DNA of 64,000 bases from Planifilum fulgidum (GTDB lineage Bacteria; Bacillota; Bacilli; Thermoactinomycetales; DSM-44946). A program made the position numbers and the translations under genes. The stretch spans positions 1-64,000 of the forward strand of contig NZ_FOOK01000016.1 in assembly GCF_900113175.1 (NCBI RefSeq), given 5' to 3'. Shown here in pieces: positions 543 through 20,866 of the stretch (position 1 is its first letter; the number at the start of each line of letters is the position of its first letter). Below the pieces are notes generated by a model. It saw only the letters and a program-made list of their open reading frames with translations. It was not told the origin of the DNA and ran no database searches.

Positions 543-1005
543 GGATGACCAGCACCTTTCTTCCTTTTGTCTTTATTGTAACCCTTTGGCACCCGAAGTG
601 TGTAAAGCGGATGTTAAGATCTTCTTGATCTTCTGTAATTTTCCCTTCTTTCCGTCGGGCGACACGCGTCCGTGTTCAGGGACTTCCGCCGCTGGGGCGG
701 GAGAAATGATTTTCAGATCGTCTCCGTAAACTTTATTGTCGCCCTTTCTGCGCATATTTATTCGGAAGCCGGTTTCCGGGGGGACATCCGCCGCTTTTCG
801 CATGAAGAGGGCGGGAGAAGGCGGCCATCAAGAAACATCGTCCACCCGCGCGCATAAATATATACTATCTTCCAAACTTTCTCTTAGCCCTCGCGAGGGA
901 GCGGCTTTTTTTCATTGGACGTGCATAGGTTGGGACGGAATGTCATATGTAGGTAAGAACCGCCGGTGCCAAAGGGAGCGAAGCTTAAGCGGAGGGGGAG
1001 CTTCG
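543..1005. other. intergenic region upstream of prkA
   Basis: No convincing gene. A 60- to 76-codon open frame on the minus strand (573 to about 755 or 803) has lysine-rich, protein-like composition but no ribosome site. An AT-rich run around 850-870 (ATAAATATATACTAT) is a plausible promoter region for prkA, and the self-complementary CCCTCGCGAGGG near 888-899 followed by T-rich sequence could be a weak terminator. In Bacillus prkA is transcribed by a sporulation sigma factor, but no clear consensus could be assigned here. Confidence 0.4.
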
Positions 1006-2904
1006 ATGGACATCCTCAAAAAGATCGCCGAGCAGCGGGAGAAAGAGAAGCAATTGGCGTGGGAAGGAACCTTTTCGGAATATTTGGAAATTGTGCGCAA
1101 GCGGCCGCAGGTGGCTCAGACGGCCCATTCGCGGGTCTACAACATGATCATCAGTCACGGAGTGGAAGTGGATGAACAGGGGAACAAGCGGTACCCCTTT
1201 TTTAGCAGGGAACTTTTCGGGCTGGACCGGGCGATTGAACGCCTGGTGGAGGAGTATTTTCATTCCGCTGCTCGTCGTCTGGACGTACGCAAGCGGATCT
1301 TGTTGTTGATGGGGCCGGTCAGCGGAGGGAAATCGACCATTGTCACCCTTCTCAAGAAGGGGCTGGAACAATATTCCCGGACGGACGAGGGGGCGGTGTA
1401 CGCCATCAAGGGCTGCCCGATGCACGAGGAACCCCTCCATTTGATCCCGCCGGAGCTCCGGGAGGAAGCGGAGCGGGAACTGGGGGTCAAGATCGAGGGG
1501 AACCTTTGTCCCTCCTGTCGCCTGCGCCTCAAGGAAGAATACGGCGGAAGAGTGGAAGATGTGATGGTGGAGCGGGTGCTGCTGTCGGAGGACGACCGGG
1601 TCGGGATCGGCACCTTCAGCCCTTCCGATCCCAAGTCCCAGGATATCTCTGAACTTACGGGCAGCATCGATTTTTCCACCATCACCGAATACGGATCGGA
1701 GTCGGATCCCCGGGCCTACCGTTTCGACGGGGAGCTCAACAAGGCCAACCGCGGACTGATGGAATTTCAGGAGATGCTCAAATGCGACGAGAAATTTTTG
1801 TGGAACCTGCTTTCCCTGACCCAGGAGGGAAATTTCAAGGCGGGGCGGTTTGCGCTCATCTCCGCCGACGAACTGATCATTGCCCATACGAACGAGGCGG
1901 AATACAAGGCGTTTATCAGCAACAAAAAGAATGAGGCGCTCCAGTCCCGGATCATCGTGATGCCGATTCCCTACAATCTCCGGGTGTCCGAGGAAGTCAA
2001 GATCTATGAAAAGCTGATCCGCCAAAGCGATCTGAAGCATGTGCACATCGCCCCCCACGCTCTGTACGCGGCGGCGGTGTTCACCATCTTGACGCGGCTG
2101 AAGGAATCGAAAAAGCAGGGAATGGATCTGGTCAAAAAGATGCGCCTGTATGACGGCGAAGCGGTGGAGGGGTACAAGGAAGCCGATGTGGAGGAGTTGC
2201 AAAACGAATTCCTGGATGAGGGGATGACGGGGATCGATCCCCGATATGTGATCAACCGCATCTCCAGCGCGCTGATCCGCAGCGATACCAACTGCATCAA
2301 CGCCCTGGATATTCTGCGTTCCCTGAAGGACGGCCTCAACCAGCATCCGTCCATCACCCGGGAGCAGCGGGAGAAATATCTCAATTTCATCTCCATCGCT
2401 CGCAAGGAGTACGATGAACTGGCGAAAAAGGAAGTGCAGAAGGCCTTCGTCTACTCCTATGAAGAGTCGGCCAAGACCCTGCTCGACAATTACCTGGACA
2501 ATGTGGAAGCCTATTGCAACATGACCAAGATCCGCGATCCGATCACGGGGGAGGAATTGGATCCCGACGAGAAGCTGATGCGCTCCATCGAGGAGCAGAT
2601 CGGCATTTCCGAGAACGCCAAAAAGGCGTTTCGCGAAGAAATCCTCATCCGCATTTCCGCCTATGCCCGCAAGGGGAAAAAATTCGACTACAACAGCCAC
2701 GAACGGCTGAGGGAAGCCATCCAGAAAAAATTGTTCGCCGATCTGAAGGATGTGGTGAAGATCACCACGTCCACCAAAACGCCGGATGAGAACCAGTTGA
2801 AGAAAATCAACGAGGTGACGGCGCGCCTCATCGATGAAAACGGATACTGCCCGATCTGCGCCAATGAGCTTCTCCGGTATGTGGGCAGTCTGCTCAACCG
2901 GTGA
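1006..2904 (+). CDS. prkA: PrkA-family serine protein kinase / AAA+ ATPase
   Basis: The 632-residue product starts MDILKKIAEQREKEKQLAWE and matches the length of Bacillus PrkA (631). It has a PrkA AAA domain with a Walker A loop GPVSGGKS at residues 103-110 and the family-specific C-terminal kinase-like domain. In Bacillus PrkA is produced early in sporulation and affects sigma-K-dependent development; kinase and Lon-like protease activities have both been proposed. The start at 1006 was chosen because GGAGGGGGAG lies 5 bases upstream and the product then begins exactly as the family does; a longer upstream frame is open but lacks a ribosome site. The yhbH gene follows after 101 bases, the usual gene order in spore formers. 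Confidence 0.96.
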   Translation: MDILKKIAEQREKEKQLAWEGTFSEYLEIVRKRPQVAQTAHSRVYNMIISHGVEVDEQGNKRYPFFSRELFGLDRAIERLVEEYFHSAARRLDVRKRILLLMGPVSGGKSTIVTLLKKGLEQYSRTDEGAVYAIKGCPMHEEPLHLIPPELREEAERELGVKIEGNLCPSCRLRLKEEYGGRVEDVMVERVLLSEDDRVGIGTFSPSDPKSQDISELTGSIDFSTITEYGSESDPRAYRFDGELNKANRGLMEFQEMLKCDEKFLWNLLSLTQEGNFKAGRFALISADELIIAHTNEAEYKAFISNKKNEALQSRIIVMPIPYNLRVSEEVKIYEKLIRQSDLKHVHIAPHALYAAAVFTILTRLKESKKQGMDLVKKMRLYDGEAVEGYKEADVEELQNEFLDEGMTGIDPRYVINRISSALIRSDTNCINALDILRSLKDGLNQHPSITREQREKYLNFISIARKEYDELAKKEVQKAFVYSYEESAKTLLDNYLDNVEAYCNMTKIRDPITGEELDPDEKLMRSIEEQIGISENAKKAFREEILIRISAYARKGKKFDYNSHERLREAIQKKLFADLKDVVKITTSTKTPDENQLKKINEVTARLIDENGYCPICANELLRYVGSLLNR

Positions 2905-3005
2905 AGGGGCGCGCCCGGGCAATGCGCGTTTTTCACCGCCTTCCGGCGGAATGGGCCGCAAGAGCGATCCGCCGGCAGGCGGATTGGTACGGGGGGTGAT
3001 CGGAA

Positions 3006-4166
3006 GTGGAAGGCCCGCTCTTCATCGTGTCCCAGGAGGATTGGTCCCTGCACCGAAAGGGTTACCAGGACCAGATGCGCCACAACGAGAAGGTGAAGGA
3101 GGCGATCCGGAAGAATCTTCCGGATCTGATCAGCGAGGAAAGCATCATCATGTCGGACGGAAGGCAAGTGGTGAAAATCCCCATCCGTTCGATGGAGGAA
3201 TACCGCTTCCGCTACAATTACAACAAAAGCAAACAGGTGGGCCAGGGGACGGGGAACAGCAAGGTGGGAGACGTGATCGCCCGGGAGTCCGCTCCCGGAA
3301 AGGGTCCGGGGAAGGGTTCCGGGGCGGGGGATCTGCCGGGAATGGATTACTACGAGGCGGAAATCACCCTGGAGGAGTTGGAGGAGATCCTGTTTGCCGA
3401 GCTGTCCCTGCCCCGGATGGCCCCCAAGCAGCAGGACGAGATGCAGACCCCGGACATCCGGTTCAATGATGTCCGCAAAAGGGGGCTGATGGGCAACATC
3501 GACAAAAAGCGGACCATCCTGGAAGCCATCAAGCGAAACGCCCTCAGAGGGCGGCCCGGTCTCGGCCGGATTTCCGACGAAGACCTGCGCTTCAAAACCT
3601 GGGAAGAGGTGGTCCGCCCCCATTCCAACGCCGTCGTCATCGCCATGATGGATACGTCGGGTTCGATGGGAGTCTTTGAAAAATATGTCGCCCGGAGCTT
3701 CTTTTTCTGGATGGTTCGCTTCCTCCGCACCAAGTACAGCCAGGTGGACATCCGGTTTATCGCCCACCATACCGAAGCGAAGGAAGTGACCGAGGAACAG
3801 TTTTTCAAAAGGGGGGAAAGCGGGGGAACCATGTGCTCCTCCGCCTACCGTCTCGCCCTGGCGATGATCGACCGCCGCTATCCGCCCCACCGTTACAACA
3901 TCTATCCCTTCCATTTCTCCGACGGCGACAACCTTGTCTCGGACAATGAACGCTGCGTCCGACTCGTCCAGGAATTGATCAAGCGCTCCAACCTCTTCGG
4001 CTACACCGAAGTGAACCAGTACGGCCGCCATTCCACCCTGATGAGCGCCTACCGCCACATCCGGGATCCCAAGTTTCGCTACTACGTCATCCGGGAGAAG
4101 GGACAGGTGTACGATGCCCTGAAGCACTTCTTCTCGAATCGGGACGAGGAAGCGCCGGCGGGGTGA
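3006..4166 (+). CDS. yhbH: YhbH family protein (DUF444, VWA-like), sporulation partner of PrkA
   Basis: The 386-residue product (GTG start, GGGGGGTGAT just upstream) is a DUF444 protein, close to the 392 residues of Bacillus YhbH. A von Willebrand A-like fold is indicated by the metal-site motif DTSGS at residues 216-220. A basic, glycine-rich linker around 95-112 separates it from the N-terminal part. prkA, yhbH and often spoVR are co-inherited in spore formers and stress-response clusters; spoVR is not in this window. The biochemical role is unknown. An intrinsic terminator follows at 4201. Confidence 0.95.
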
Positions 4167-10538: not shown

Positions 10539-11453
10539 CGTGCAACGCCTCCTTGGAAGTGCTTTCGGGTCATCCTTTAATTGCGTCCTTTGATTTAATC
10601 CCGGGTCGTTTCCGGCAGTGGTACTGATGACGATTGCCCCGGCCGCCGCTGGTTGAGGATCATTCGCGAAACGGATCCACCTGGTCATGCCGGGCACCGG
10701 ATCCGGGGGTGTCGCCTGCTAAGATATGAAGGGGTTTGGCAATGCCGGGAAAGAGCGTTTGTCCCGTCAGGGATCAAGAGACACGTTTTTATTTTTTTAA
10801 CGGGCGGCTGGATTCCTTTTTTGCAGAGACCCGCGTGGCCCCGTTGGGAACAGAGACAAAATCCATCATTACAATAACAAGTTTTCATGTATCTGCCCAG
10901 TTCGAAATGGCCTGTTTTTGAGTGGCTGGAAAAGTCGTTTCCACTGGCCGCCGCGGTGTTGAAACATTTCAGTATGGAAGGGGTTTGCTTAAGTTCCTAC
11001 CGGGAAACCCTCGGGAGGGGTGATCAAAAATCCGTAGAAATAGGGAAAAGGGGTATCGAAGACGTTTGGCGGCGGACGCCGGCTTGGCCGGTCAGATGTA
11101 TCCGGATCCGAGCCTGTGTCCCCTCAGGTCCCGCATGTGGTGAAGCGGATCAACCAAGGGCTGCAGCGCGCCGAAATTCACGGGGTTCGGTGTCCGCCGT
11201 CAGCAGATGTCGCAGGAAAGGTGTGTCCATCCAAAAAATCGATGCAAACGTCGGAAAAGGAAGGAAGCGGTCCGAGAACGTTCCGGTTCTCGGATCGGGT
11301 GGTGCGGGCCCTGACCGCATGCAGGGGATTTCCGCGAGTTTGAACCCGTTGGATTTTCCCTTCTGGAACGCTCCTCGTTGCTTGGCTGCAGAAAACCGGA
11401 ATCTTTCTCCGGACCATCCGGTTTGACCGAACATTTTGAAAGGAAGGATTGCC
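10539..11453. other. 900-base region without intact gene, probably eroded
   Basis: No frame has a good ribosome site and coherent composition. A 179-codon plus-strand frame from 10887 lacks any recognisable motif and has arginine/proline-heavy composition typical of non-coding GC-rich DNA. Short protein-like pieces occur near 11110-11340. The AAGGAAGGA ribosome site and start of the KDPG aldolase gene close the region. Confidence 0.35.
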
Positions 11454-12107: not shown

Positions 12108-12171
12108 ACTCCATTCCTGGTCTGGAAGTCATCGGTTATGAGTTTGAATAATTACTGAGATAGGGGAAAAA

Positions 12172-12205
12172 GGTTGTGCCGTTCCTTCGGCACAACCCTT
12201 TTTGT
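12172..12205 (+). terminator. terminator of the KDPG aldolase gene
   Basis: GGTTGTGCCG (12172-12181) pairs with CGGCACAACC (12188-12197) around a TTCCTT loop, followed by CTTTTTGTT. It marks the left limit of the AT-rich pPIWI-RE island. Confidence 0.88.
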
Positions 12206-12226: not shown

Positions 12227-12261
12227 AATATTTATGCAAATAAATATTGCGGTATTTATTT
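12227..12261. promoter_or_regulatory. phased inverted-repeat array upstream of the pPIWI-RE operon (putative operator)
   Basis: Two overlapping perfect inverted repeats share one arm: AATATTTA/TAAATATT (12227-12248, 6-base spacer) and AAATAAATA/TATTTATTT (12238-12261, 6-base spacer). The three TATTTA/TAAATA half-sites begin at 12229, 12241 and 12253, exactly 12 bp apart. The array ends 36 bp upstream of the -35 box. It could bind a regulator or act as an UP-element; no regulator gene lies next to it. Confidence 0.5.
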
Positions 12262-12297
12262 CTGGGATAAATGGAAACAAAAATTCAAAATAATGAG

Positions 12298-12326
12298 TTG
12301 TGTTTTTAACTAAAAATTATTAAAAT
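12298..12326 (+). promoter_or_regulatory. sigma-A-type promoter of the pPIWI-RE operon
   Basis: TTGTGT (12298-12303) and TAAAAT (12321-12326) are separated by 17 bp, giving a predicted start near 12333 and a leader of about 35 bases. Confidence 0.6.
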
Positions 12327-12368
12327 AGTAAATGATAGTTGGAATACATTTGAAGATGAGGTGGTTTA

Positions 12369-13442
12369 ATGGAGGAATTCCGGAAAGACGTTATCCAGGA
12401 AATTTTATATACCCAATTGATTGCGATAAAGAACTTAAATGAAGCACTGAAAAAAGATGAATTTACCATGCCGGATTCTGTTGTTCATGCACGGCGGCAA
12501 TTGGCCCATTATTTTCTTAACAATGGAAGAAAACCTTTGTTAGGCTTGAATGAATGGGTGACAGCGATGCTGCAACCAGTTAAGACATGGTTGCCCGAGG
12601 CGGAAGATTTCATCAATTTAGAAGCTCCACTTTGGGAGAACAACGGATGGAGCCGGGATTCCGAATATTTTTTGCAAGCATACGGGAGACCAGAAGACTA
12701 TCAGGAACTAACAGTGTTAAAGGTTCTTGAATATTGTCGTAAGAATAACGATCAAGAGGGTTATGTTCTTTTTCGGAGCTTTCTGTCAGATCCGGAATGG
12801 GCAGTTGTGTCGGAAGAAGAGTTGAATCAGATGGCCGCGTCGTTTTCGGATGAGTTTTTGAAACAGCAGATAAGAGCTTGTTATGAGCCTTTTGCTGAGT
12901 GGGAACAGGCCAGAAAGTGTCCTTATTGCGGCTGGAGTTTATTAAAAAAATCAGGATTGTGGCACTGCGGTCACGCTAATGTGTGTTTTGATTTGGAAGG
13001 ATCAAACAAATGGTCTCTACAAACGGCTGAGCCCTTTCCTTTTGGGAAAGATACGCGCGTCTATCGGCTTCGGCCTGGGATCCACCGCTATACCCTGATC
13101 CCTGGAATTCCTGAAAAAAGGATAGCCGAAAATTTGAGCAAGATCCATCGCGTCGAACGTTACCCGGAACAGGATCGATTTGATCTTGCTGTTTATCTGG
13201 ACAACAGAAATATTTATTTAGATGTGAAATGCTTTCGAAGCCCCGATCATTTGGCAACCTATATTGAACGATTGGGGCCCGAGAGATTGGAAGAGTTCCG
13301 AACCCATGCCTGGTTTGTGATTCCGAGGGAATACGCCAGTAAAGGTTACATAAATCGAGTCCGCAATCGAATCGAACTTCAGGTGAATGTTTGTGAAGAA
13401 GATCAGCTGTATCAACTGCTGAAAGAAGGAGTGGTGTCATGA
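12369..13442 (+). CDS. pPIWI-RE-associated restriction-endonuclease-like protein with zinc finger
   Basis: The 357-residue protein has three visible parts: a helical N-terminal region (1-175), a zinc-binding cluster CPYC...HCGHANVC with C184, C187, C200 and C206 (H202 alternative), and a C-terminal PD-(D/E)xK nuclease-like core. In the core D272 (RFDLAVYL) and D285-x-K287 (IYLDVKCF) form the expected catalytic set, with predicted strand-strand spacing typical of Mrr/REase folds. This matches the REase component of pPIWI-RE modules. The gene starts the operon: GAGGTGG lies four bases before ATG 12369, and its end overlaps the helicase start by 4 bases (ATGA). Base composition is clearly more AT-rich than the flanking chromosome. 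No function has been shown here; nuclease activity is inferred. Confidence 0.8.
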   Translation: MEEFRKDVIQEILYTQLIAIKNLNEALKKDEFTMPDSVVHARRQLAHYFLNNGRKPLLGLNEWVTAMLQPVKTWLPEAEDFINLEAPLWENNGWSRDSEYFLQAYGRPEDYQELTVLKVLEYCRKNNDQEGYVLFRSFLSDPEWAVVSEEELNQMAASFSDEFLKQQIRACYEPFAEWEQARKCPYCGWSLLKKSGLWHCGHANVCFDLEGSNKWSLQTAEPFPFGKDTRVYRLRPGIHRYTLIPGIPEKRIAENLSKIHRVERYPEQDRFDLAVYLDNRNIYLDVKCFRSPDHLATYIERLGPERLEEFRTHAWFVIPREYASKGYINRVRNRIELQVNVCEEDQLYQLLKEGVVS

Positions 13443-16400
13443 ACCGTCTGACATTGTTTCAATTGTGTGAAGAGATCGGGAAAAAGGGGTATTTTGATGC
13501 TCTCGGTTTTGGTGTCGAGAGAGGTGAGATCCACCGGAAGAAACGGTTTGTTGAAGTGGAATTCACTCTGTACGGAGGATATCACAGTGGACTCAGTGAT
13601 TGGCCGGCAAAAGACTTGTGGGCGGCTTTGAAAGGATGGGAGGAGTTGGTACTCCCGAATAGCGCTGATGTGGATCGGATTCGACGCCTACGTTTGCTTG
13701 TTTATTCGTTTCAAAACAAAGCCATTTGGGAAGAAGCCCTTTCATTATATCTCAAAGTTGAGGAACGCTATCGCCTGTTTACAGTGGATGAATCGGGACG
13801 TTTTCACCCGCGTTCTGTTTCTCCGGTGGTTTGTTCCGACAGAGAGAAAATATACGAGAAGATTCTCTCTGCCGCCATTCCCCGCAGAAAGCGAAAAATC
13901 CCCTTGGCTCGGCCCGGTGAATGTTTTCAATACGATCGCGAGGAAACAAACGACCAATACTTTGTAAAAATACCTTCTGGTTTTGTCGTTTCTTCGCCTA
14001 TGGAGATCACTCGCGGAAAGAAACGTCCATTTACCCCTCCAGTCGATTTTGACTGGGCGAAGTTGGGCAGGGAAATGGATCGCATCCGGGAAGAAAACGG
14101 TTTAAAACCGGTTGATTATGCCGGCCGGATGGAAAAGTTGTCCTTGGTCCCCTTGAATGGACAAGGTAAGAAATCCATGAATATTACCGGATTGACACAT
14201 ATTCTGGGAGGCTTGGGCGCAGGGAAGTCCACATGGATGGTGGCTGTGGCTTATGAACTGGTGAAACGACAAGGGGCCAAGGTTGGATTTATCGAAAGTA
14301 GCGTAGCCAATATATTGAAACGGGCCGAAGAGCTTCGCGCGCTCAATCTCTCTGTGGCCACCATTATTGGTACGGGCCAGCGGATCGATCATGAAAGGGA
14401 ATATTTGGATCGGCCGGGATTGACACTGGAAGAGATCGCATCGGATTCCAGCCTGATCGACTTGTCTTCGCTTTGTTTGCTTGAATCCCTTGCGGAAGAC
14501 GAAACTATAAATAACAGATATCCTTGCCAACGTTTGTATAAAAGCAATGATAGGAAAAAGCGTTATGCTTGTCCCATGGCATCAGAATGCGGACTGTATC
14601 GGCAACTGGCCACTTTGGATCAAGCGGACGTGTGGATCGCCACGCCAGCCAGTTTGGTGTTTACCCGCATACCTCCCCAAATTTGTCCGGATAACCCCAC
14701 TTTATACGAAGCGTTTTATGAGGCGTTGGATGTGGTGTTCGTCGATGAAGCGGATGCCCTTCAGGAAGTTTTTGACGAATTGTTTATTCGTGATGAAAAA
14801 TTGTTCGGAGATCGCGGTCACCTCATTGAAAACGCCATTCGCGATATTCGCAATGCCTTACACGGTTTGTATGAACCGGGGGGACATTTTTTAACGCGTT
14901 ATTTGCGGCGGTGTGATAATGCCCTCGATGCAACACGCTGTCTGTTCCAATTGATCAAAGAGCATCCCAAAATTCAGGAATATTTGCGGAACCGTGTTTC
15001 TTTCAAATTCCAGTGGGAGCATAAAGTGCGATGCTCACTCAAAAGATGGAATCCCACTGCCGATCTGAATCCGTTTTTTAAAGTGTTAAAGACTTGGAAC
15101 CAGTCCCCCTTCCGAAGTGAATTATGGGAAGAGCGTCATCGTAACGGTACGGTTTGGTATCAGAAAATCGAGGATTTTCTTGACGGAAATATCGATCTTC
15201 AGCAATTGCTGGCCTTAGCTCCCGATAAATCTTTGAGTAAGTCTGAAATAAGGAATATCGAGGCGGAATGCCGATTTTACCTTTGGCTTTGTCGGCTGGA
15301 ATCAAGCTTGGATTATATCACGGAGCGTTATCCCCAGTTACTTTCTTTTGTGGAGGAGCTAGAAGTTGATCTTCCCTTCAGTGCCGCAAAAAACCCGTTA
15401 TTACCCCACCTGCCCACGCCAACGCTGGGATACCGTTATGGCTATCGCCTAGTTAAGGAAGAGGACTCCCAAAACCTGGTCATGAAATTGATTGAATACA
15501 ATACTGTCGGTCGTTTTCTTCTTTACCGGTTCCCCGATCTTTTCCGGCCGGCAGGGGACGGGGCGGGGCCTGCTGTTATTCTCTTATCCGGAACAACCCT
15601 TGCTCCCCGCAATGCTCATTTTTCCTTGTCCGTGACTCCGGAATGGTTGATTACTTCCGACAACAAGGCTTCGGAAATCACTCAAAAGTTTGTTCCCATA
15701 ACAGATTCGACAGGTCGCCATATACGCGTGTCCGGAATGAAGCCGTCGGAAAGGCGGACAGCCCTCAAAGAATTGGCGCGTCAGCTGCCTTCGTTGATCG
15801 AGGTAGAAAAAAATCATTGGAAGAATCAGAGAAGGGTGCTCATTGTGACCAATTCTTATCGTGACAGTGAGGCGATGGAAGAAGTTTTTTCCCGTTCACC
15901 GCTCCAGGGGCGGATCAAATCTTTGACGCGAAAAATCAAAGATTCCATACATGTCACACGTCCGCGCCTCATGGAAGTTGCCAAAGAAGTGGATGCCCTG
16001 ATCACCCCGCTTTCCGCCATGAACCGCGGGGTGAACCTGGTCGACGAGAATCGGAAAGCTCTTTTCGGAACAGCATTATTTGTCAGCCGTCCTTATCCTC
16101 CTCCCCAGGAAATTGCCTACATTCTCTCTTTTATTCACAGCCGTATCCCTTCTTTAATCCTACAGGTTCAAAGGGAAGGGTTGTCCGGAAAAGAGGCGCT
16201 TTCCTGTTTTCGCAAGATCTGTCATGCCATTTTTGAGAAAATGCATGACGAGCCAAACTTCTGGATGCAATTGAGCGATGAAGAGCGGTTGGACTTGGCT
16301 TGGTATTTGTTTGTTCCGATTTGGCAGATGGCTGGCCGCCTTGTCCGGGGAGGAATGCCTGCTCGACTGTTGTATATCGATTCAAGCTTTGCTTCCGGTA

Positions 16401-16534
16401 CTGAAGCGTCCACTCTTTTTCAGTCTTGGCATCAATTGTTTGAGCCCTATAAGGATCACTGGCTTTACCAAGAATTATATGGCCCCTTCTTGTCCTCGTT
16501 GGAGTCTCTCGTATTCGAAGAAAGTCGGAAATGA
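13439..16534 (+). CDS. DinG/XPD-like SF2 helicase of the pPIWI-RE module
   Basis: The 1031-residue protein has an N-terminal family-specific region (about 1-190, corresponding to the pPIWI_RE_Z domain), then a helicase. The Walker A loop GGLGAGKS is at 257-264, the DEAD box (FVDEADAL) at 436-439, and motif VI QMAGRLVR at 963-970. Cysteines 363, 378, 384 and 416 lie between motifs I and II, where DinG/XPD helicases bind a 4Fe-4S cluster; spacing suits such a site. A strand ending ILLSGTTLAPRN corresponds to the usual SATL-type motif. It would unwind DNA or RNA-DNA hybrids. GGAG lies seven bases before ATG 13439. Translation is coupled to the nuclease gene and followed by the PIWI gene after 13 bases. 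Confidence 0.88.
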   Translation: MNRLTLFQLCEEIGKKGYFDALGFGVERGEIHRKKRFVEVEFTLYGGYHSGLSDWPAKDLWAALKGWEELVLPNSADVDRIRRLRLLVYSFQNKAIWEEALSLYLKVEERYRLFTVDESGRFHPRSVSPVVCSDREKIYEKILSAAIPRRKRKIPLARPGECFQYDREETNDQYFVKIPSGFVVSSPMEITRGKKRPFTPPVDFDWAKLGREMDRIREENGLKPVDYAGRMEKLSLVPLNGQGKKSMNITGLTHILGGLGAGKSTWMVAVAYELVKRQGAKVGFIESSVANILKRAEELRALNLSVATIIGTGQRIDHEREYLDRPGLTLEEIASDSSLIDLSSLCLLESLAEDETINNRYPCQRLYKSNDRKKRYACPMASECGLYRQLATLDQADVWIATPASLVFTRIPPQICPDNPTLYEAFYEALDVVFVDEADALQEVFDELFIRDEKLFGDRGHLIENAIRDIRNALHGLYEPGGHFLTRYLRRCDNALDATRCLFQLIKEHPKIQEYLRNRVSFKFQWEHKVRCSLKRWNPTADLNPFFKVLKTWNQSPFRSELWEERHRNGTVWYQKIEDFLDGNIDLQQLLALAPDKSLSKSEIRNIEAECRFYLWLCRLESSLDYITERYPQLLSFVEELEVDLPFSAAKNPLLPHLPTPTLGYRYGYRLVKEEDSQNLVMKLIEYNTVGRFLLYRFPDLFRPAGDGAGPAVILLSGTTLAPRNAHFSLSVTPEWLITSDNKASEITQKFVPITDSTGRHIRVSGMKPSERRTALKELARQLPSLIEVEKNHWKNQRRVLIVTNSYRDSEAMEEVFSRSPLQGRIKSLTRKIKDSIHVTRPRLMEVAKEVDALITPLSAMNRGVNLVDENRKALFGTALFVSRPYPPPQEIAYILSFIHSRIPSLILQVQREGLSGKEALSCFRKICHAIFEKMHDEPNFWMQLSDEERLDLAWYLFVPIWQMAGRLVRGGMPARLLYIDSSFASGTEASTLFQSWHQLFEPYKDHWLYQELYGPFLSSLESLVFEESRK

Positions 16535-16547
16535 GGAGTGATGATTT

Positions 16548-18932
16548 ATGACGAATCAACACCGATTACATTTGTTTGCCTTTGACGTGACTCATCCCCC
16601 TGTGCCGGATCAACCGGTTTATGGTTTAAGGTTCTCCCCTTCTTGGCGTGAGATGATTTGGCCCGGCCGTTCTGAAGGGTGTCATGTGAAAACGCCGGGT
16701 TTGGCCAGTTTGAGAGAGGAGTTGATGCAGCTATATCCCGGCTTGTTATACACCCGCTTCGACGAATCGGCTCTTGCCGGAAAGACGCCTGCACTTGTTG
16801 CTGAACAACCGATTCCAGCGGATGTGCTTGCTTGGCACTTTACCCGCCATTTCAAGCGGATCGGAAAATCCGCCTCCTTCGATGCGTCCGATGTCGAATG
16901 GTCCCGCATCGATTGGGCTAAGGTGGATCATCAACAAGACGCGATATTCAGCTGGCTGCCAGCGTATGTGTCCCGTCGTTTTGCCGAATCCGCCAAACCC
17001 TTCAGAGTCATGGAGTATAAGCGAAAGACGAAACAGCAGGTGTTTGAAGGAGAATTGCGGTTTTATCCGGTTTTTCTGAACGGAAAATATGGCTGCATGA
17101 CTGAACCCTACAAAGGATATTCCTATGCCGTTTATTTTTCAGTGGAAACGCGCGCAAACCAACCTGGAAGAAAATTTTTGTACATTCATCCACGAATTCA
17201 TCGCTTCGTTTCCGTGTCTGTCAAAAGGGGGTTGTCGCCTAAAAGAAATGGCACGGTGTTGATCCGTTTGCCTCACAGACAAGGAAAAACACCCTTTGTT
17301 CCGGTAACGATTACCAAGAGCTCCAAACAGGGAGTTGCAGCGGAGTGGAAAGAAGATTGGATACCGGAATACTTGAATTATTTTCTTCCCGAACCTTTGG
17401 AATTGGAATCCCTTTTGAGTGAGCCGTCCAGATATCAAAATGTGGAGGGAGAAATTTGCGCATTACTATTGTACAATCCTGTTTTTTATTCTTCCTATTA
17501 CAATGAAAAAGTGGCCAAAGGCGGGATGGGGCTTTCGGAGAGAAAGCAACTGTTTGATCTTTTTCAAGAGGTTTTTCCGGAATTGGAACCGTTGCAGCCG
17601 CTAAAGGAAGTGAAAACCAAACGAATTGTAAAAAAGAAATTCCCTATGACTGTAACCGATTCTGAAGAAAGTCGTTTACGGATCAATTGTCACACGACCG
17701 ATCCTGTATTTCAGAATTTGGTTGAACAAATTGAAGGATTGACCGACTATTTCTCAAGGCAGGATAATTGTGTGTACAAACTGCGTGCCAGTGGGCCTGA
17801 AATGGTGGTGGAGTTGAGGCATTGTCCGGACAGCGGTGTCGTCCAGGATGTAGATATCAACCATCCTCACCGGACTCTGCGCAGAATGAAAACGATGATA
17901 ACAAAATGGGGTAAAGCGCATGGTGCGTTGGTGATGATCGAACCGAAAAAAACCTGGTCGGAAAATCCGAAGGCTGATCCCAAACATGCATTGCGGGTTG
18001 CCTTTGCGGAATGCGGACAGATCACCCAATTTTTGCATGACGATAATGAGGAAAATTTTGAACACAGGGTGAAAAACGCCTTTTTCGATCTGCTGAGCGA
18101 TTTCGGGGTCTATACGCATCACCTGATTGAAGGGGTGGATCGGGAACGGGTTTGGTTGTTTGTTACCGCCTTCAGGCCCCACGAATTGAATGAGGGCCGC
18201 GTATTATACGCCCGTTATGACGGTGATCGCTATTTGATCCGTATGGAAGGAGACGACGGATCTTGGAGGGCCTTGCCCGAGTTTATTACCGATGCGGGAG
18301 GTTTAAAACAGGGGCTTGAAAGAGATGGCCTGACAAGAGAGAAGCAACCTGAAATCGAACGAACCATCCTTCAAATTCTGCAGGAAACGGAAAGGCCTCT
18401 GACTGTTGTTTTTGATCGAATTCCTTTGACCAAGTTGTATTATCCCGTTCAGGATAAACACCTGATTAATGGAGACTGGATCCTGACGAGGCCTGAACTT
18501 GATTACCAACGCAACCGCCTCCGCATTTTGCGAATAACGACGGGAGATCAGGTGCCTGATTACTACAACGATGAATACGGAAAAGCTTATTCATACCGTT
18601 CCGGACTGTTCCTCTCTGAGGATGGTGTTTACTATAGCCTTGGGCAAAAACCGAAAACCTATCGAGGAGCTGTTTTGCTTACAAAAGCTACCGATCCTTC
18701 GGAGCTATTGCTTCAACCCAATCTGGTGGAAATTTTGCCAGTGGGACATTGGGACCCCGGTGAAGTGGAAGAGGCCGTTCGACAGCTTCACATGTTGCGA
18801 AAGGCAAATCTGACCTATGATCATCATACGATTTATCCGGCACCGTTACACCGATTGAATGCGGCAAAAAAATATTTGGAGGCGTTTCTCACTGTTCAAA
18901 GGAGCGTCAAAAATGATCGCGTGAGAATATAA
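16548..18932 (+). CDS. prokaryotic PIWI protein, pPIWI-RE family
   Basis: The 794-residue product matches the pPIWI-RE architecture: an N-terminal X region (about 1-300), a MID-like part (about 360-470) and a C-terminal RNase H-fold PIWI domain (about 475-794). Recognisable family segments are ADPKHALRVAFAECGQITQF (476-495), the strand LTVVFDRI with D623, the arginine-rich strand NRLRILRITTGDQVPDY (656-672; R658, R662), GLFLSEDGVYYSLG (686-699) and NLVEILPVG with E728. Conserved arginine and glutamate give the family its name. Unlike ordinary Argonautes the protein has no clear PAZ. Such proteins are predicted to bind guide-target duplexes or R-loops in defence against invading DNA. GGAG about ten bases upstream supports ATG 16548. 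A terminator follows at 18969. Confidence 0.88.
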   Translation: MTNQHRLHLFAFDVTHPPVPDQPVYGLRFSPSWREMIWPGRSEGCHVKTPGLASLREELMQLYPGLLYTRFDESALAGKTPALVAEQPIPADVLAWHFTRHFKRIGKSASFDASDVEWSRIDWAKVDHQQDAIFSWLPAYVSRRFAESAKPFRVMEYKRKTKQQVFEGELRFYPVFLNGKYGCMTEPYKGYSYAVYFSVETRANQPGRKFLYIHPRIHRFVSVSVKRGLSPKRNGTVLIRLPHRQGKTPFVPVTITKSSKQGVAAEWKEDWIPEYLNYFLPEPLELESLLSEPSRYQNVEGEICALLLYNPVFYSSYYNEKVAKGGMGLSERKQLFDLFQEVFPELEPLQPLKEVKTKRIVKKKFPMTVTDSEESRLRINCHTTDPVFQNLVEQIEGLTDYFSRQDNCVYKLRASGPEMVVELRHCPDSGVVQDVDINHPHRTLRRMKTMITKWGKAHGALVMIEPKKTWSENPKADPKHALRVAFAECGQITQFLHDDNEENFEHRVKNAFFDLLSDFGVYTHHLIEGVDRERVWLFVTAFRPHELNEGRVLYARYDGDRYLIRMEGDDGSWRALPEFITDAGGLKQGLERDGLTREKQPEIERTILQILQETERPLTVVFDRIPLTKLYYPVQDKHLINGDWILTRPELDYQRNRLRILRITTGDQVPDYYNDEYGKAYSYRSGLFLSEDGVYYSLGQKPKTYRGAVLLTKATDPSELLLQPNLVEILPVGHWDPGEVEEAVRQLHMLRKANLTYDHHTIYPAPLHRLNAAKKYLEAFLTVQRSVKNDRVRI

Positions 18933-18968
18933 TGTGCCGATGAAGTGAAAACTTCGGTATGGTAACAA

Positions 18969-18998
18969 GAAAGCGGATGCTCCTGGGCATCCGCTTTC
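18969..18998. terminator. bidirectional terminator between the pPIWI-RE operon and the ABC-F gene
   Basis: GAAAGCGGATGC (18969-18980) pairs perfectly with 18987-18998 around TCCTGG. T-rich sequence within and after the 3' arm on both strands suits the convergent arrangement. It is the right limit of the AT-rich island. Confidence 0.8.
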
Positions 18999-19016: not shown

Positions 19017-20648
19017 TCACCACTCCCCCCGTTTCCGCCGGGCTTCGTCGTAATTCCCCTCAAAGCGGGTCAGGATGCCGTTTTCCAGCCAGTAGACGGG
19101 AGCGAACAGCTGGTTCAAAAAGTAGCGGTCATGGGAGACGGCGAGGATGGTGCCGCGGAAATCCCGCAGCGCCTCTTCCAGCACCTCCCGGGAGTCGATG
19201 TCCAGATGGTTGGTCGGCTCATCCAGAATCAGCGCGTTCACTTCGCGGTGCATCAGCTGGGCAAGCCGCAGGCGCATCCGCTCGCCGCCGCTCAGATCCC
19301 GGATCTTGCGGAAGACGGAGTGGCCGTAGAAGAGGAACCGGGCAAGAATCTGCCGGGCCGTGCCCGCATCTAAGGGGACTTCTTCCCGGAACGCTTCCAA
19401 CACGGTCATGTCCGGGTCCCCCTCCCAACCCTGCTGGGAAAGATATCCCGCCTTGACCGACGGTCCCACGTACACTTCGCCCCGATCCGGCGCAATCTCA
19501 CCGGTCAGGAGGCGGAGAAGGGTGGATTTTCCCGCACCGTTTTTTCCCACCACCGCCACCCTTTCGCCGGATCTTACCACCAGGTTTGCCCCCCTCAGGA
19601 CCGGCTCCCGGCCGTAATGCTTGTAAATGTCTTCGAGCCGGAACACGATCTCCCCGCTCCGCTCTTGGCCGCCGAAGTTCAGGGCCATTTTTTTCCGCTC
19701 CAGGACCGGCCGCTTTAGCATCTCCATCCGCTTGAGGGCCTTTTCCATGCTGGAGGCCCTCCGGTGAAGGCCGGCGCTGGGAGGGTTGGAACGGTTGGCC
19801 CACTCCCGCAACCGCTTGATGGCTTCCTCCATCTTTTTGATTTTCTTCTGCTGTTCCCGGTAAGCCTGGAATTCCGCCAGCAGGCGCTGTTCTTTTTCCC
19901 TGACGAAGTGGGAGTAATTTCCCTGGTACAGGGTGCTCCTGCCGTCTTCCAAATCGATGATCCGGTTGACGACCCGATCCAGGAAATAGCGGTCGTGGGA
20001 TACGACCACCACCGCCCCGCGCCATTGGGATAAAAGCTCCTCCAACCATTCCAAGGCCGAAAGATCCAGATGGTTGGTGGGTTCGTCCAGCAGGAGCAGG
20101 TCGGGTTCGGATAGCAACACCTGGGCCAGACCGACCTTGGTCTTTTCCCCGCCGCTGAGGTCGGCAAAGGGACGATCCGGAACATCTTCCGGAAGACGGA
20201 GGCCGCGCACCACCCGGCGGATGCGGGCCTCCATCTCGTACCCGCCACGTTTTTCGAATTCCTCCTGGCAGGCCTGATATCGATTCAAGATTTGTTCCAT
20301 TTGCTTTTCATCGAGCGTGGCATCGGCCATCCGGTTTGCCAGCTCTTCCATTTTCCGTTCCAGATCGATCAGCTCCGCAAAGGGGGAGCGCAGCACGTCC
20401 ATCACCGTCGCTCCCGGGTCCGCCTGGGGAACTTGTTCGAGGTAGCCGATCCGAGCCCCTTTGGCCAGAAACACCGTTCCCCGGTCGGGCGCGATTTCTC
20501 CCGCCAGGAGGCGGAGGAGCGTCGTTTTTCCCGATCCGTTGGGACCGACCAGCCCGACCCGTTCACCCCGCTTGACCACGAAACTCACGTCGCTCAATAC
20601 CCAGCGGTCCTCCAGATGTTTGCCCACGCGATCGGCCGCAATGATCAT
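19017..20648 (-). CDS. ABC-F family ATPase (ribosome-associated)
   Basis: The 543-residue soluble protein has two ATPase domains and no membrane segments: Walker A GPNGSGKTT and GKNGAGKST, signatures LSGGEKT and LSGGERM, and two LLLDEPTNHLD/LILDEPTNHLD Walker B boxes. Between them is a charged linker (QQKKIKKMEEAIKRLREWAN) that in ABC-F proteins reaches into the ribosome. ABC-F proteins regulate translation or dislodge ribosome-targeting antibiotics. ATG at 20648 was chosen because AAGGAGG lies eight bases upstream; ATG 20654 is too close. The frame stays open upstream to an ATG at 20756 inside the leader. The leader holds an upstream ORF and a terminator hairpin, which favours an inducible antibiotic-response role. 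Confidence 0.92.
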   Translation of the reverse strand: MIIAADRVGKHLEDRWVLSDVSFVVKRGERVGLVGPNGSGKTTLLRLLAGEIAPDRGTVFLAKGARIGYLEQVPQADPGATVMDVLRSPFAELIDLERKMEELANRMADATLDEKQMEQILNRYQACQEEFEKRGGYEMEARIRRVVRGLRLPEDVPDRPFADLSGGEKTKVGLAQVLLSEPDLLLLDEPTNHLDLSALEWLEELLSQWRGAVVVVSHDRYFLDRVVNRIIDLEDGRSTLYQGNYSHFVREKEQRLLAEFQAYREQQKKIKKMEEAIKRLREWANRSNPPSAGLHRRASSMEKALKRMEMLKRPVLERKKMALNFGGQERSGEIVFRLEDIYKHYGREPVLRGANLVVRSGERVAVVGKNGAGKSTLLRLLTGEIAPDRGEVYVGPSVKAGYLSQQGWEGDPDMTVLEAFREEVPLDAGTARQILARFLFYGHSVFRKIRDLSGGERMRLRLAQLMHREVNALILDEPTNHLDIDSREVLEEALRDFRGTILAVSHDRYFLNQLFAPVYWLENGILTRFEGNYDEARRKRGEW

Positions 20649-20663
20649 CGGCATGCCCTCCTT

Positions 20664-20706
20664 GAAAAACAAAACACCGCAGGCAAGGTTGCCCCACCTG
20701 CGGTGT
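20664..20706 (-). terminator. leader terminator (attenuator) of the ABC-F gene
   Basis: On the minus strand ACACCGCAGG (plus 20697-20706) pairs perfectly with CCTGCGGTGT (plus 20674-20683), followed by TTTGTTTTTC. It ends one base from the AAGGAGG of the ABC-F gene, so by default transcription would stop before the gene. Confidence 0.75.
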
Positions 20707-20752
20707 GGTTGTTGTGAACGAAAAGCCGCAATCCGTGTGAAGGGAACCTTCC

Positions 20753-20866
20753 TCATGCACCGGTCGTTTTCGGATGGCTGAAAAAGGGCACACGAATCCC
20801 GTTTGCGGCCAATCGATAGGTAATATTGGAAATTTCATTCCACCAAGCCATCCGACCGGCACACAT
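20753..20866 (-). CDS. 37-codon upstream ORF in the ABC-F leader
   Basis: From ATG 20866 a 37-residue frame starts MCAGRMAWWNEISNITYRLA and ends FSHPKTTGA. A very strong ribosome site (GGGAGGTGAAGGG) lies directly upstream. Its TGA overlaps an ATG at 20754-20756 (ATGA), which is in frame with the ABC-F protein and runs through the terminator hairpin. This layout suits ribosome-mediated attenuation: a ribosome stalled by an antibiotic on this ORF could change folding of the downstream hairpin. Leader peptides of this type are known for several antibiotic-inducible ABC-F genes. The sequence itself matches nothing I recognise. Confidence 0.6.
   Translation of the reverse strand: MCAGRMAWWNEISNITYRLAANGIRVPFFSHPKTTGA

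What the first reader, a model, noticed from the sequence alone, without database searches (positions are those of the whole stretch)
12227..18998. Complete three-gene pPIWI-RE island: predicted PIWI-based conflict system on an AT-rich insert
Seen: three co-directional genes with a 4-base overlap and a 13-base gap, own promoter and terminators on both sides, and base composition well below the flanking chromosome. The products are a PD-(D/E)xK-like nuclease with a zinc cluster, a DinG/XPD-like helicase, and an 800-residue protein with the C-terminal pPIWI-RE segments (AECGQITQF, RLRILRITTGDQVPDY, VEILPVG). Known: pPIWI-RE modules were predicted from comparative genomics to pair exactly these components and to act against invading nucleic acid, probably through R-loops. 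Inference: this is a mobile defence system. How it recognises targets, and whether it uses guides, is not settled.
Basis: partly seen in the sequence, partly recalled or inferred. Interest (0 to 1): 0.88.

Follow-up and report, generated by a model that had tools for sequence, protein, structure and literature searches.

The report
Three-gene pPIWI-RE defence island
This stretch of a bacterial chromosome carries a complete copy of a known but little-tested three-gene system (an Argonaute-like protein, a helicase and a DNA-cutting enzyme) that probably destroys invading plasmids or phages, with the cutting most likely done by the separate nuclease because the Argonaute-like part has lost a catalytic residue.

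Summary
Window 12369-18932 carries a co-directional REase-DinG-PIWI triad that matches the Pfam pPIWI-RE models (REase, Z, X, MID, RNaseH above cut-off; Y just below) and PADLOC PprRE/PprDinG/PprPIWI. This is the three-gene pPIWI-RE island predicted in 2013 (PMC3702460): a new member of a known kind. Added here: (i) the family-defining R662 and E728 are present, but the first RNase-H Asp is gone, while the REase site (E249, D272, D285-x-K287), Fe-S Cys4 and helicase motifs are intact in all triads aligned; (ii) the N-terminal X domain models like the Argonaute N-L1-L2/APAZ lobe; (iii) in relatives the triad sits beside MADS, BrxA/GmrSD and other defence genes, or on Nostoc plasmids; (iv) the three proteins are co-inherited (Mantel r 0.99), under purifying selection (dN/dS about 0.15), patchy within genera, and 46% G+C in a 60% context, but shared at the same site by the sister species, so not a recent insert. 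Best model: a DdmDE/ApsAB-like split system, in which a guided, non-cutting PIWI recruits a 5'-3' Fe-S helicase and a PD-(D/E)xK nuclease onto invading DNA. Guides, targets and defence activity are untested. The promoter and present-day mobility claims are not supported.

The parts
12369..13442 (+). REase gene (pPIWI_RE_Y helical domain + zinc ribbon + PD-(D/E)xK REase), 357 aa
   Evidence: Pfam PF18154 52.7 bits (cut-off 26.1), PF18156 23.8 bits (below its cut-off 26.7); PADLOC PprRE 1.2e-11
12918..12986 (+). zinc ribbon, C184/C187/C200/C206
   Evidence: four Cys kept in 13 triads
13104..13424 (+). REase domain with E249, D272, D285-V-K287
   Evidence: invariant in 13 triads; model aligns with PD-(D/E)xK nucleases such as Hjc, Bax1, Can2
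13439..16534 (+). DinG/XPD-type SF2 helicase gene with N-terminal Z domain, 1031 aa
   Evidence: PADLOC PprDinG 6.7e-104, Pfam pPIWI_RE_Z 1.1e-16
14210..14233 (+). Walker A (GGLGAGKS)
   Evidence: invariant K263
14474..14590 (+). Fe-S cluster region, C346-C363-C378-C384
   Evidence: four Cys invariant in 11 homologues and present in Nostoc plasmid copies
14744..14755 (+). DEAD/H box (DEAD)
16325..16348 (+). helicase motif VI (QMAGRLVR)
16548..18932 (+). pPIWI-RE gene, 794 aa
   Evidence: PADLOC PprPIWI 6.7e-89; three Pfam pPIWI-RE domains
16596..17666 (+). X domain, predicted Argonaute N-L1-L2/APAZ-like
   Evidence: Pfam PF13111 3e-19; model residues 6-358 align with pAgo N-terminal lobes and APAZ
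17913..18119 (+). MID domain with DPKxxxR motif (R483 invariant)
   Evidence: Pfam PF18157 3.2e-13; alignment of 18
18159..18161 (+). position of the first RNase-H catalytic Asp, here F538 (lost)
   Evidence: no D/E in RVWLFVTAFRPH in any register
18237..18875 (+). RNase H (PIWI) domain; D623 kept, family-defining R662 and E728 kept
   Evidence: Pfam PF13032 70.1 bits
12167..12202 (+). intrinsic terminator between KDPG aldolase gene and the island
18969..18998 (.). 12-bp perfect hairpin between convergent PIWI and ABC-F genes, probable terminator
   Evidence: conserved in sister species

Best explanation
A complete three-gene pPIWI-RE island acting as an anti-invader DNA system that works like a split DdmDE/ApsAB. 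Proposed steps: (1) the PIWI protein binds a short guide strand through its MID pocket and pairs with invading DNA (inferred); (2) it cannot cut well itself because the first catalytic Asp of its RNase-H site is missing (sequence-based); (3) the loop that forms recruits the Fe-S DinG helicase, which loads on the displaced strand and runs 5'-3' (inferred from DinG, CasDinG and DdmD); (4) the PD-(D/E)xK protein, with all catalytic residues, cuts the DNA (residues shown, activity inferred). Plasmids are the most likely target, phages second (inferred from DdmDE, ApsAB, type IV-A CRISPR).
For: Family membership of all three proteins. Fixed gene order and tight spacing in 13 triads, -38 to +40 nt; distance matrices of the three proteins almost identical, Mantel r 0.992-0.994, 0 of 5000 permutations. 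Catalytic asymmetry: REase E/D/DxK in 13 of 13, helicase and Fe-S residues intact, none of 18 PIWIs with both Asp positions. PIWI model matches are Argonautes or short-Argonaute subunits in 48 of the 50 rows, including DdmE. dN/dS 0.146-0.164 against the sister species. Defence neighbours in relatives: mad6-8, PDC-S37-like helicase-nuclease, GmrSD and BrxA. Patchy presence inside five genera. A relative encoded next to dinG and a nuclease gene, PsPIWI-RE, is an RNA-guided DNA and DNA-guided RNA nuclease (PMC10991935). DdmDE and ApsAB combine an Ago-like protein with an SF2 helicase-PD-(D/E)xK protein and remove plasmids (PMC12409362, PMC11096173).
Against: No experiment on any inactive-PIWI triad was found. 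No guide source is visible: no tandem repeats, no Rfam hit, upstream leader not conserved in the sister species. The window island itself has no defence neighbours. The MID/PIWI part of the structural model is unusable (pLDDT about 30), so loss of catalysis rests on alignment. Fold matches all have Z of 8 or less. PsPIWI-RE deletion gave a ciprofloxacin phenotype; defence was not tested there.
Confidence: 0.55

Rival explanations
1. R-loop-sensing restriction without guides (the 2013 model): the PIWI recognises DNA-RNA hybrids already present on transcribed or replicating invaders, DinG unwinds or translocates, REase cuts.
For: DinG acts on R-loops; the PsPIWI-RE pocket prefers DNA/RNA hybrid pairings (PMC3702460, PMC10991935). 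No guide source seen near the island.
Against: MID residues are kept (R483 in 18 of 18) and PsPIWI-RE is guide-programmable in vitro; classical pAgos load guides without any dedicated locus (established knowledge), so lack of one is weak evidence.
Confidence: 0.25
2. A DNA repair or replication accessory operon, as proposed for Pseudomonas stutzeri, not a defence system.
For: piwi-re deletion sensitises P. stutzeri to ciprofloxacin; DinG relatives are repair helicases; purifying selection and vertical inheritance in the genus.
Against: Patchy presence inside genera, anomalous composition, defence-gene neighbours in relatives, copies on Nostoc plasmids.
Confidence: 0.12
3. Modification-dependent (McrBC-like) restriction in which PIWI and helicase only help a REase that reads modified or structured DNA.
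For: REase without a methylase, first in the operon (noted in PMC3702460); GmrSD neighbour in one relative.
Against: No modified-base reader domain found in the REase protein; does not explain a conserved MID/PIWI module.
Confidence: 0.05

Closest known systems
Three-gene pPIWI-RE island (Burroughs, Iyer, Aravind 2013; PADLOC Ppr proteins)
   Same: Gene order REase-DinG-PIWI, Y-ZnR-REase, Z-DinG with Cys-rich Fe-S region, X-MID-RNaseH, invariant R and E, overlapping genes, patchy spread
   Different: Nothing that defines the family differs; this copy belongs to the catalytically incomplete PIWI subset and has no N-terminal HTH fusion
PsPIWI-RE of Pseudomonas stutzeri DSM4166 (PMC10991935)
   Same: Same family, next to dinG and a nuclease gene; D623 corresponds to its D610 by spacing, R662 to R639, E728 to E718
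   Different: It has D525 and cuts guided targets; the window protein has F538 at that place (inferred from alignment and from the same 85-residue spacing to the second Asp; its sequence itself was not available here)
DdmDE (Vibrio cholerae) and ApsAB (E. coli)
   Same: Ago-like guide protein (non-cutting in DdmE) + SF2 helicase + PD-(D/E)xK nuclease; the D-x12-D-V-K spacing of ApsA (D1420, D1433, K1435) also occurs here (D272, D285, K287)
   Different: Helicase and nuclease are fused there; here they are separate and the helicase is of the Fe-S DinG type; PIWI proteins are not detectably related in sequence here
Type IV-A CRISPR with CasDinG (and CasDinG-HNH)
   Same: A guided complex that opens DNA and uses a DinG-type 5'-3' helicase
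   Different: crRNA and Csf proteins instead of a PIWI; no repeat array here; CasDinG lacks the Fe-S Cys that are present here (PMC11981726)

Membership tests
three-gene pPIWI-RE island | Two family-specific conserved residues, R and E, in the RNase-H extension | tested here: met
   R662 and E728 present, invariant in 18 homologues
three-gene pPIWI-RE island | X, MID and RNase-H pPIWI-RE domains in one protein | tested here: met
   PF13111, PF18157, PF13032 all above cut-off
three-gene pPIWI-RE island | First gene encodes Y helical domain, zinc ribbon and REase fold | tested here: met
   REase above cut-off; Y domain at 23.8 bits, under its 26.7 cut-off; Cys4 and E/D/DxK present
three-gene pPIWI-RE island | Second gene encodes Z domain plus DinG-type helicase with Cys-rich Fe-S region | tested here: met
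   PF18155 1.1e-16, PprDinG 6.7e-104, four invariant Cys
three-gene pPIWI-RE island | Fixed order REase-DinG-PIWI with overlapping or close termini | tested here: met
   -4 and +13 nt; same order in 13 triads
catalytically active PIWI (DEDX tetrad) | Catalytic Asp on strand 1 and strand 4 of the RNase-H fold | tested here: not met
   Strand 1 RVWLFVTAFRPH has no acidic residue; strand 4 D623 kept. Alignment-based; model too poor to confirm
DdmDE / ApsAB | Ago-like protein paired with a fused SF2 helicase-PD-(D/E)xK protein | tested here: not met
   Helicase and nuclease are separate genes; kinship to DdmE not shown by sequence, fold match Z 5.6-5.8 only. The works-like claim is unaffected
defence system | Protects host from plasmid or phage | not testable with these tools
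   Only context evidence
mobile element | Mobility gene, terminal repeats, target duplication or empty site | tested here: inconclusive
   None found at the borders; sister species occupied at the same site; third genus member too incomplete

The most novel reading that the evidence does not exclude
The pPIWI-RE triads with a catalytically incomplete PIWI are a further, independent design of guided plasmid elimination beside DdmDE and type IV-A CRISPR: a non-cutting PIWI whose X domain is a diverged Argonaute N-L1-L2/APAZ lobe hands DNA to a separate Fe-S DinG helicase and a separate PD-(D/E)xK nuclease.
Probability: 0.4. Interest if true: 0.68.

Novelty: new member of a known kind. Interest (0 to 1): 0.45.

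Why it matters
The pPIWI-RE triad was predicted as a defence system in 2013 and, in the papers held here, only one PIWI of it has been tested in vitro, without a defence assay. This copy is a clean, complete, selected operon with intact REase and helicase and a PIWI that should bind but not cut. That makes the open question - who cuts, with which guide, against what - directly testable by single-residue mutants.

Tried and rejected
Empty site: flank genes searched in relatives; the sister species is occupied, G001 is 67% complete and gave no orthologue of KDPG aldolase or manA, other families have different neighbours. Copies of this clade on plasmids, phages or IMG/VR contigs: none; distant triads on Nostoc plasmids only through another query. 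Solved homologue by sequence: none. Encoded guide RNA or repeats: no Rfam match, no tandem repeats, leader not conserved. Structure of the MID/PIWI half: AF2 with five rows gave pLDDT about 30, so reading catalytic geometry from it was dropped. A plain protein query against GTDB contigs found nothing, an alignment query found four named relatives. Considered and rejected: housekeeping operon (patchy), pseudogene (dN/dS about 0.15, no stops), chance ORFs (family scores).
Full report
Observation. The three genes are real and placed as described: 12369-13442, 13439-16534 and 16548-18932, all +, with a 4-base overlap and a 13-base gap. The region has 46.3% G+C in a window whose other 6.8-kb stretches average 59.9%; none of those falls below 53.6%, and third-position G+C is 0.43-0.50 against 0.75-0.79 in the flanking genes tested. 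A strong terminator separates it from the KDPG aldolase gene (12167-12202) and a 12-bp perfect hairpin (18969-18998) separates it from a convergent ABC-F gene. A promoter was not found by consensus scan; that sub-claim stays open.

Identity. Protein 1 hits pPIWI_RE_REase (5e-14, above cut-off) and pPIWI_RE_Y (just under cut-off); protein 2 hits pPIWI_RE_Z (1e-16) and PADLOC PprDinG (7e-104); protein 3 hits pPIWI_RE_X, MID_pPIWI_RE and RNaseH_pPIWI_RE above cut-off and PprPIWI at 7e-89. These are the components, order and spacing of the three-gene pPIWI-RE island described by Burroughs, Iyer and Aravind (PMC3702460). No solved structure is related by sequence to the PIWI or the helicase (a helicase match at E 0.65 to an apoptosis regulator is chance).

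Relatives. Of 42 genomes of the order (named members: Kroppenstedtia guangzhouensis, Paenactinomyces guangxiensis, Shimazuella kribbensis), 11 encode a detectable homologue, and presence varies within five genera. In a spread of 398 genomes of the phylum the RNase-H profile passes its cut-off in two, one of them this genome. The sister species G002 has the triad at the orthologous site, between the same KDPG aldolase and ABC-F/manA genes; synonymous divergence of the three genes (0.23-0.26) is like or slightly below that of the neighbours (0.27-0.36) and dN/dS is 0.146-0.164. So the island was in the common ancestor, has been kept by purifying selection and still carries foreign composition; its G+C equals that of the nearest homologues, in Kroppenstedtia guangzhouensis and G025 (46-47%). 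Origin by transfer is therefore likely; recent mobility is not shown. Distant triads lie on Nostoc plasmids, one typed as conjugative, near a tyrosine recombinase.

Unit. In 13 triads the gene order is the same and the neighbouring ends lie within 40 nt; pairwise distance matrices of the three proteins correlate at 0.992-0.994. The proteins travel and evolve together.

Active sites. The helicase keeps Walker A, DEAD box, motif VI and four Cys (C346, C363, C378, C384) in all 11 homologues aligned. The nuclease keeps E249, D272, D285 and K287 and a four-Cys ribbon in 13 of 13. The PIWI keeps R662 and E728, the residues that name the family, and the MID residue R483 in 18 of 18; it keeps D623 at the second catalytic place but has no acidic residue anywhere in the first strand (RVWLFVTAFRPH), where the active PsPIWI-RE needs D525 (PMC10991935). 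The distance from F538 to D623 equals that from D525 to D610. None of the 18 sequences has both. This reading is from alignment; the structural model of this half failed (pLDDT about 30).

Fold. The N-terminal 350 residues of the PIWI were modelled with fair confidence. In the structural re-alignment 48 of the 50 rows are Argonautes or subunits of short-Argonaute systems (best Z 8.0, A. aeolicus Ago; DdmE 5.6-5.8; many rows cover model residues 6-358 only). Z values of 8 or less are weak one by one; their near-unanimity makes it likely that the X domain is a diverged N-L1-L2/APAZ lobe, a link that the 2013 sequence comparison did not see. The REase domain aligns with Hjc, Bax1, Can2 and restriction enzymes (best Z 7.8, 3.0 A over 100 residues).

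Context. Genes beside the triad in relatives include mad6-mad7-mad8, a helicase with an MTES_1575 nuclease, GmrSD and BrxA, and a serine recombinase in one. The window's own neighbours are metabolic and other non-defence genes as far as tested.

Mechanism. Shown: components, intact residues, co-inheritance, selection. From literature: DdmDE and ApsAB remove plasmids with an Ago-like protein plus SF2 helicase and PD-(D/E)xK nuclease; DinG enzymes move 5'-3', and a CasDinG variant is proposed to translocate along the displaced strand of an RNA-guided loop while cutting; PsPIWI-RE takes guides. Inferred: here a guided or hybrid-binding PIWI that cannot cut opens invading DNA, the DinG loads on the displaced strand and the separate REase cuts. 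The main rival is hybrid sensing without guides; a repair role is less likely.

Verdict. A real, complete, probably functional member of a known and under-tested family. New here are the catalytic asymmetry across triads, the Ago-lobe reading of the X domain and the defence neighbours in this order; none of these makes it a new kind.

Noticed in passing
window 11067-11174: A 108-bp frameshifted relic of an isocitrate lyase gene, 87% identical to another copy in the genome (G000:C35:26467-26578), just upstream of the KDPG aldolase gene; the region left of the island has been rearranged before.
   Followed up: partly
window 19017-20756: ABC-F ATPase gene convergent with the island; best matches (69-71%) in another family of the order, no close orthologue in the three f5 genomes, and its orthologue is broken in the sister species.
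   Followed up: partly
L020 3-11433: A mad6-mad7-mad8 (MADS) defence cluster directly upstream of the triad in Paenactinomyces guangxiensis.
   Followed up: no
L039 1787-6239: On a Streptomyces plasmid a pPIWI-RE gene is followed by a 228-aa ORF and an annotated restriction endonuclease, an arrangement that puts a nuclease after the PIWI.
   Followed up: no
L026 8480-15397 and L027 8305-15190: Two genomes of the order carry a very divergent triad clade (about 20% identity) with an Asp in the first RNase-H strand but none at the aligned place in the fourth.
   Followed up: partly
window 736-4166: Neighbouring PrkA-type serine kinase and DUF444 genes, a pair known from spore formers (the link to sporulation is from general knowledge).
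   Followed up: no
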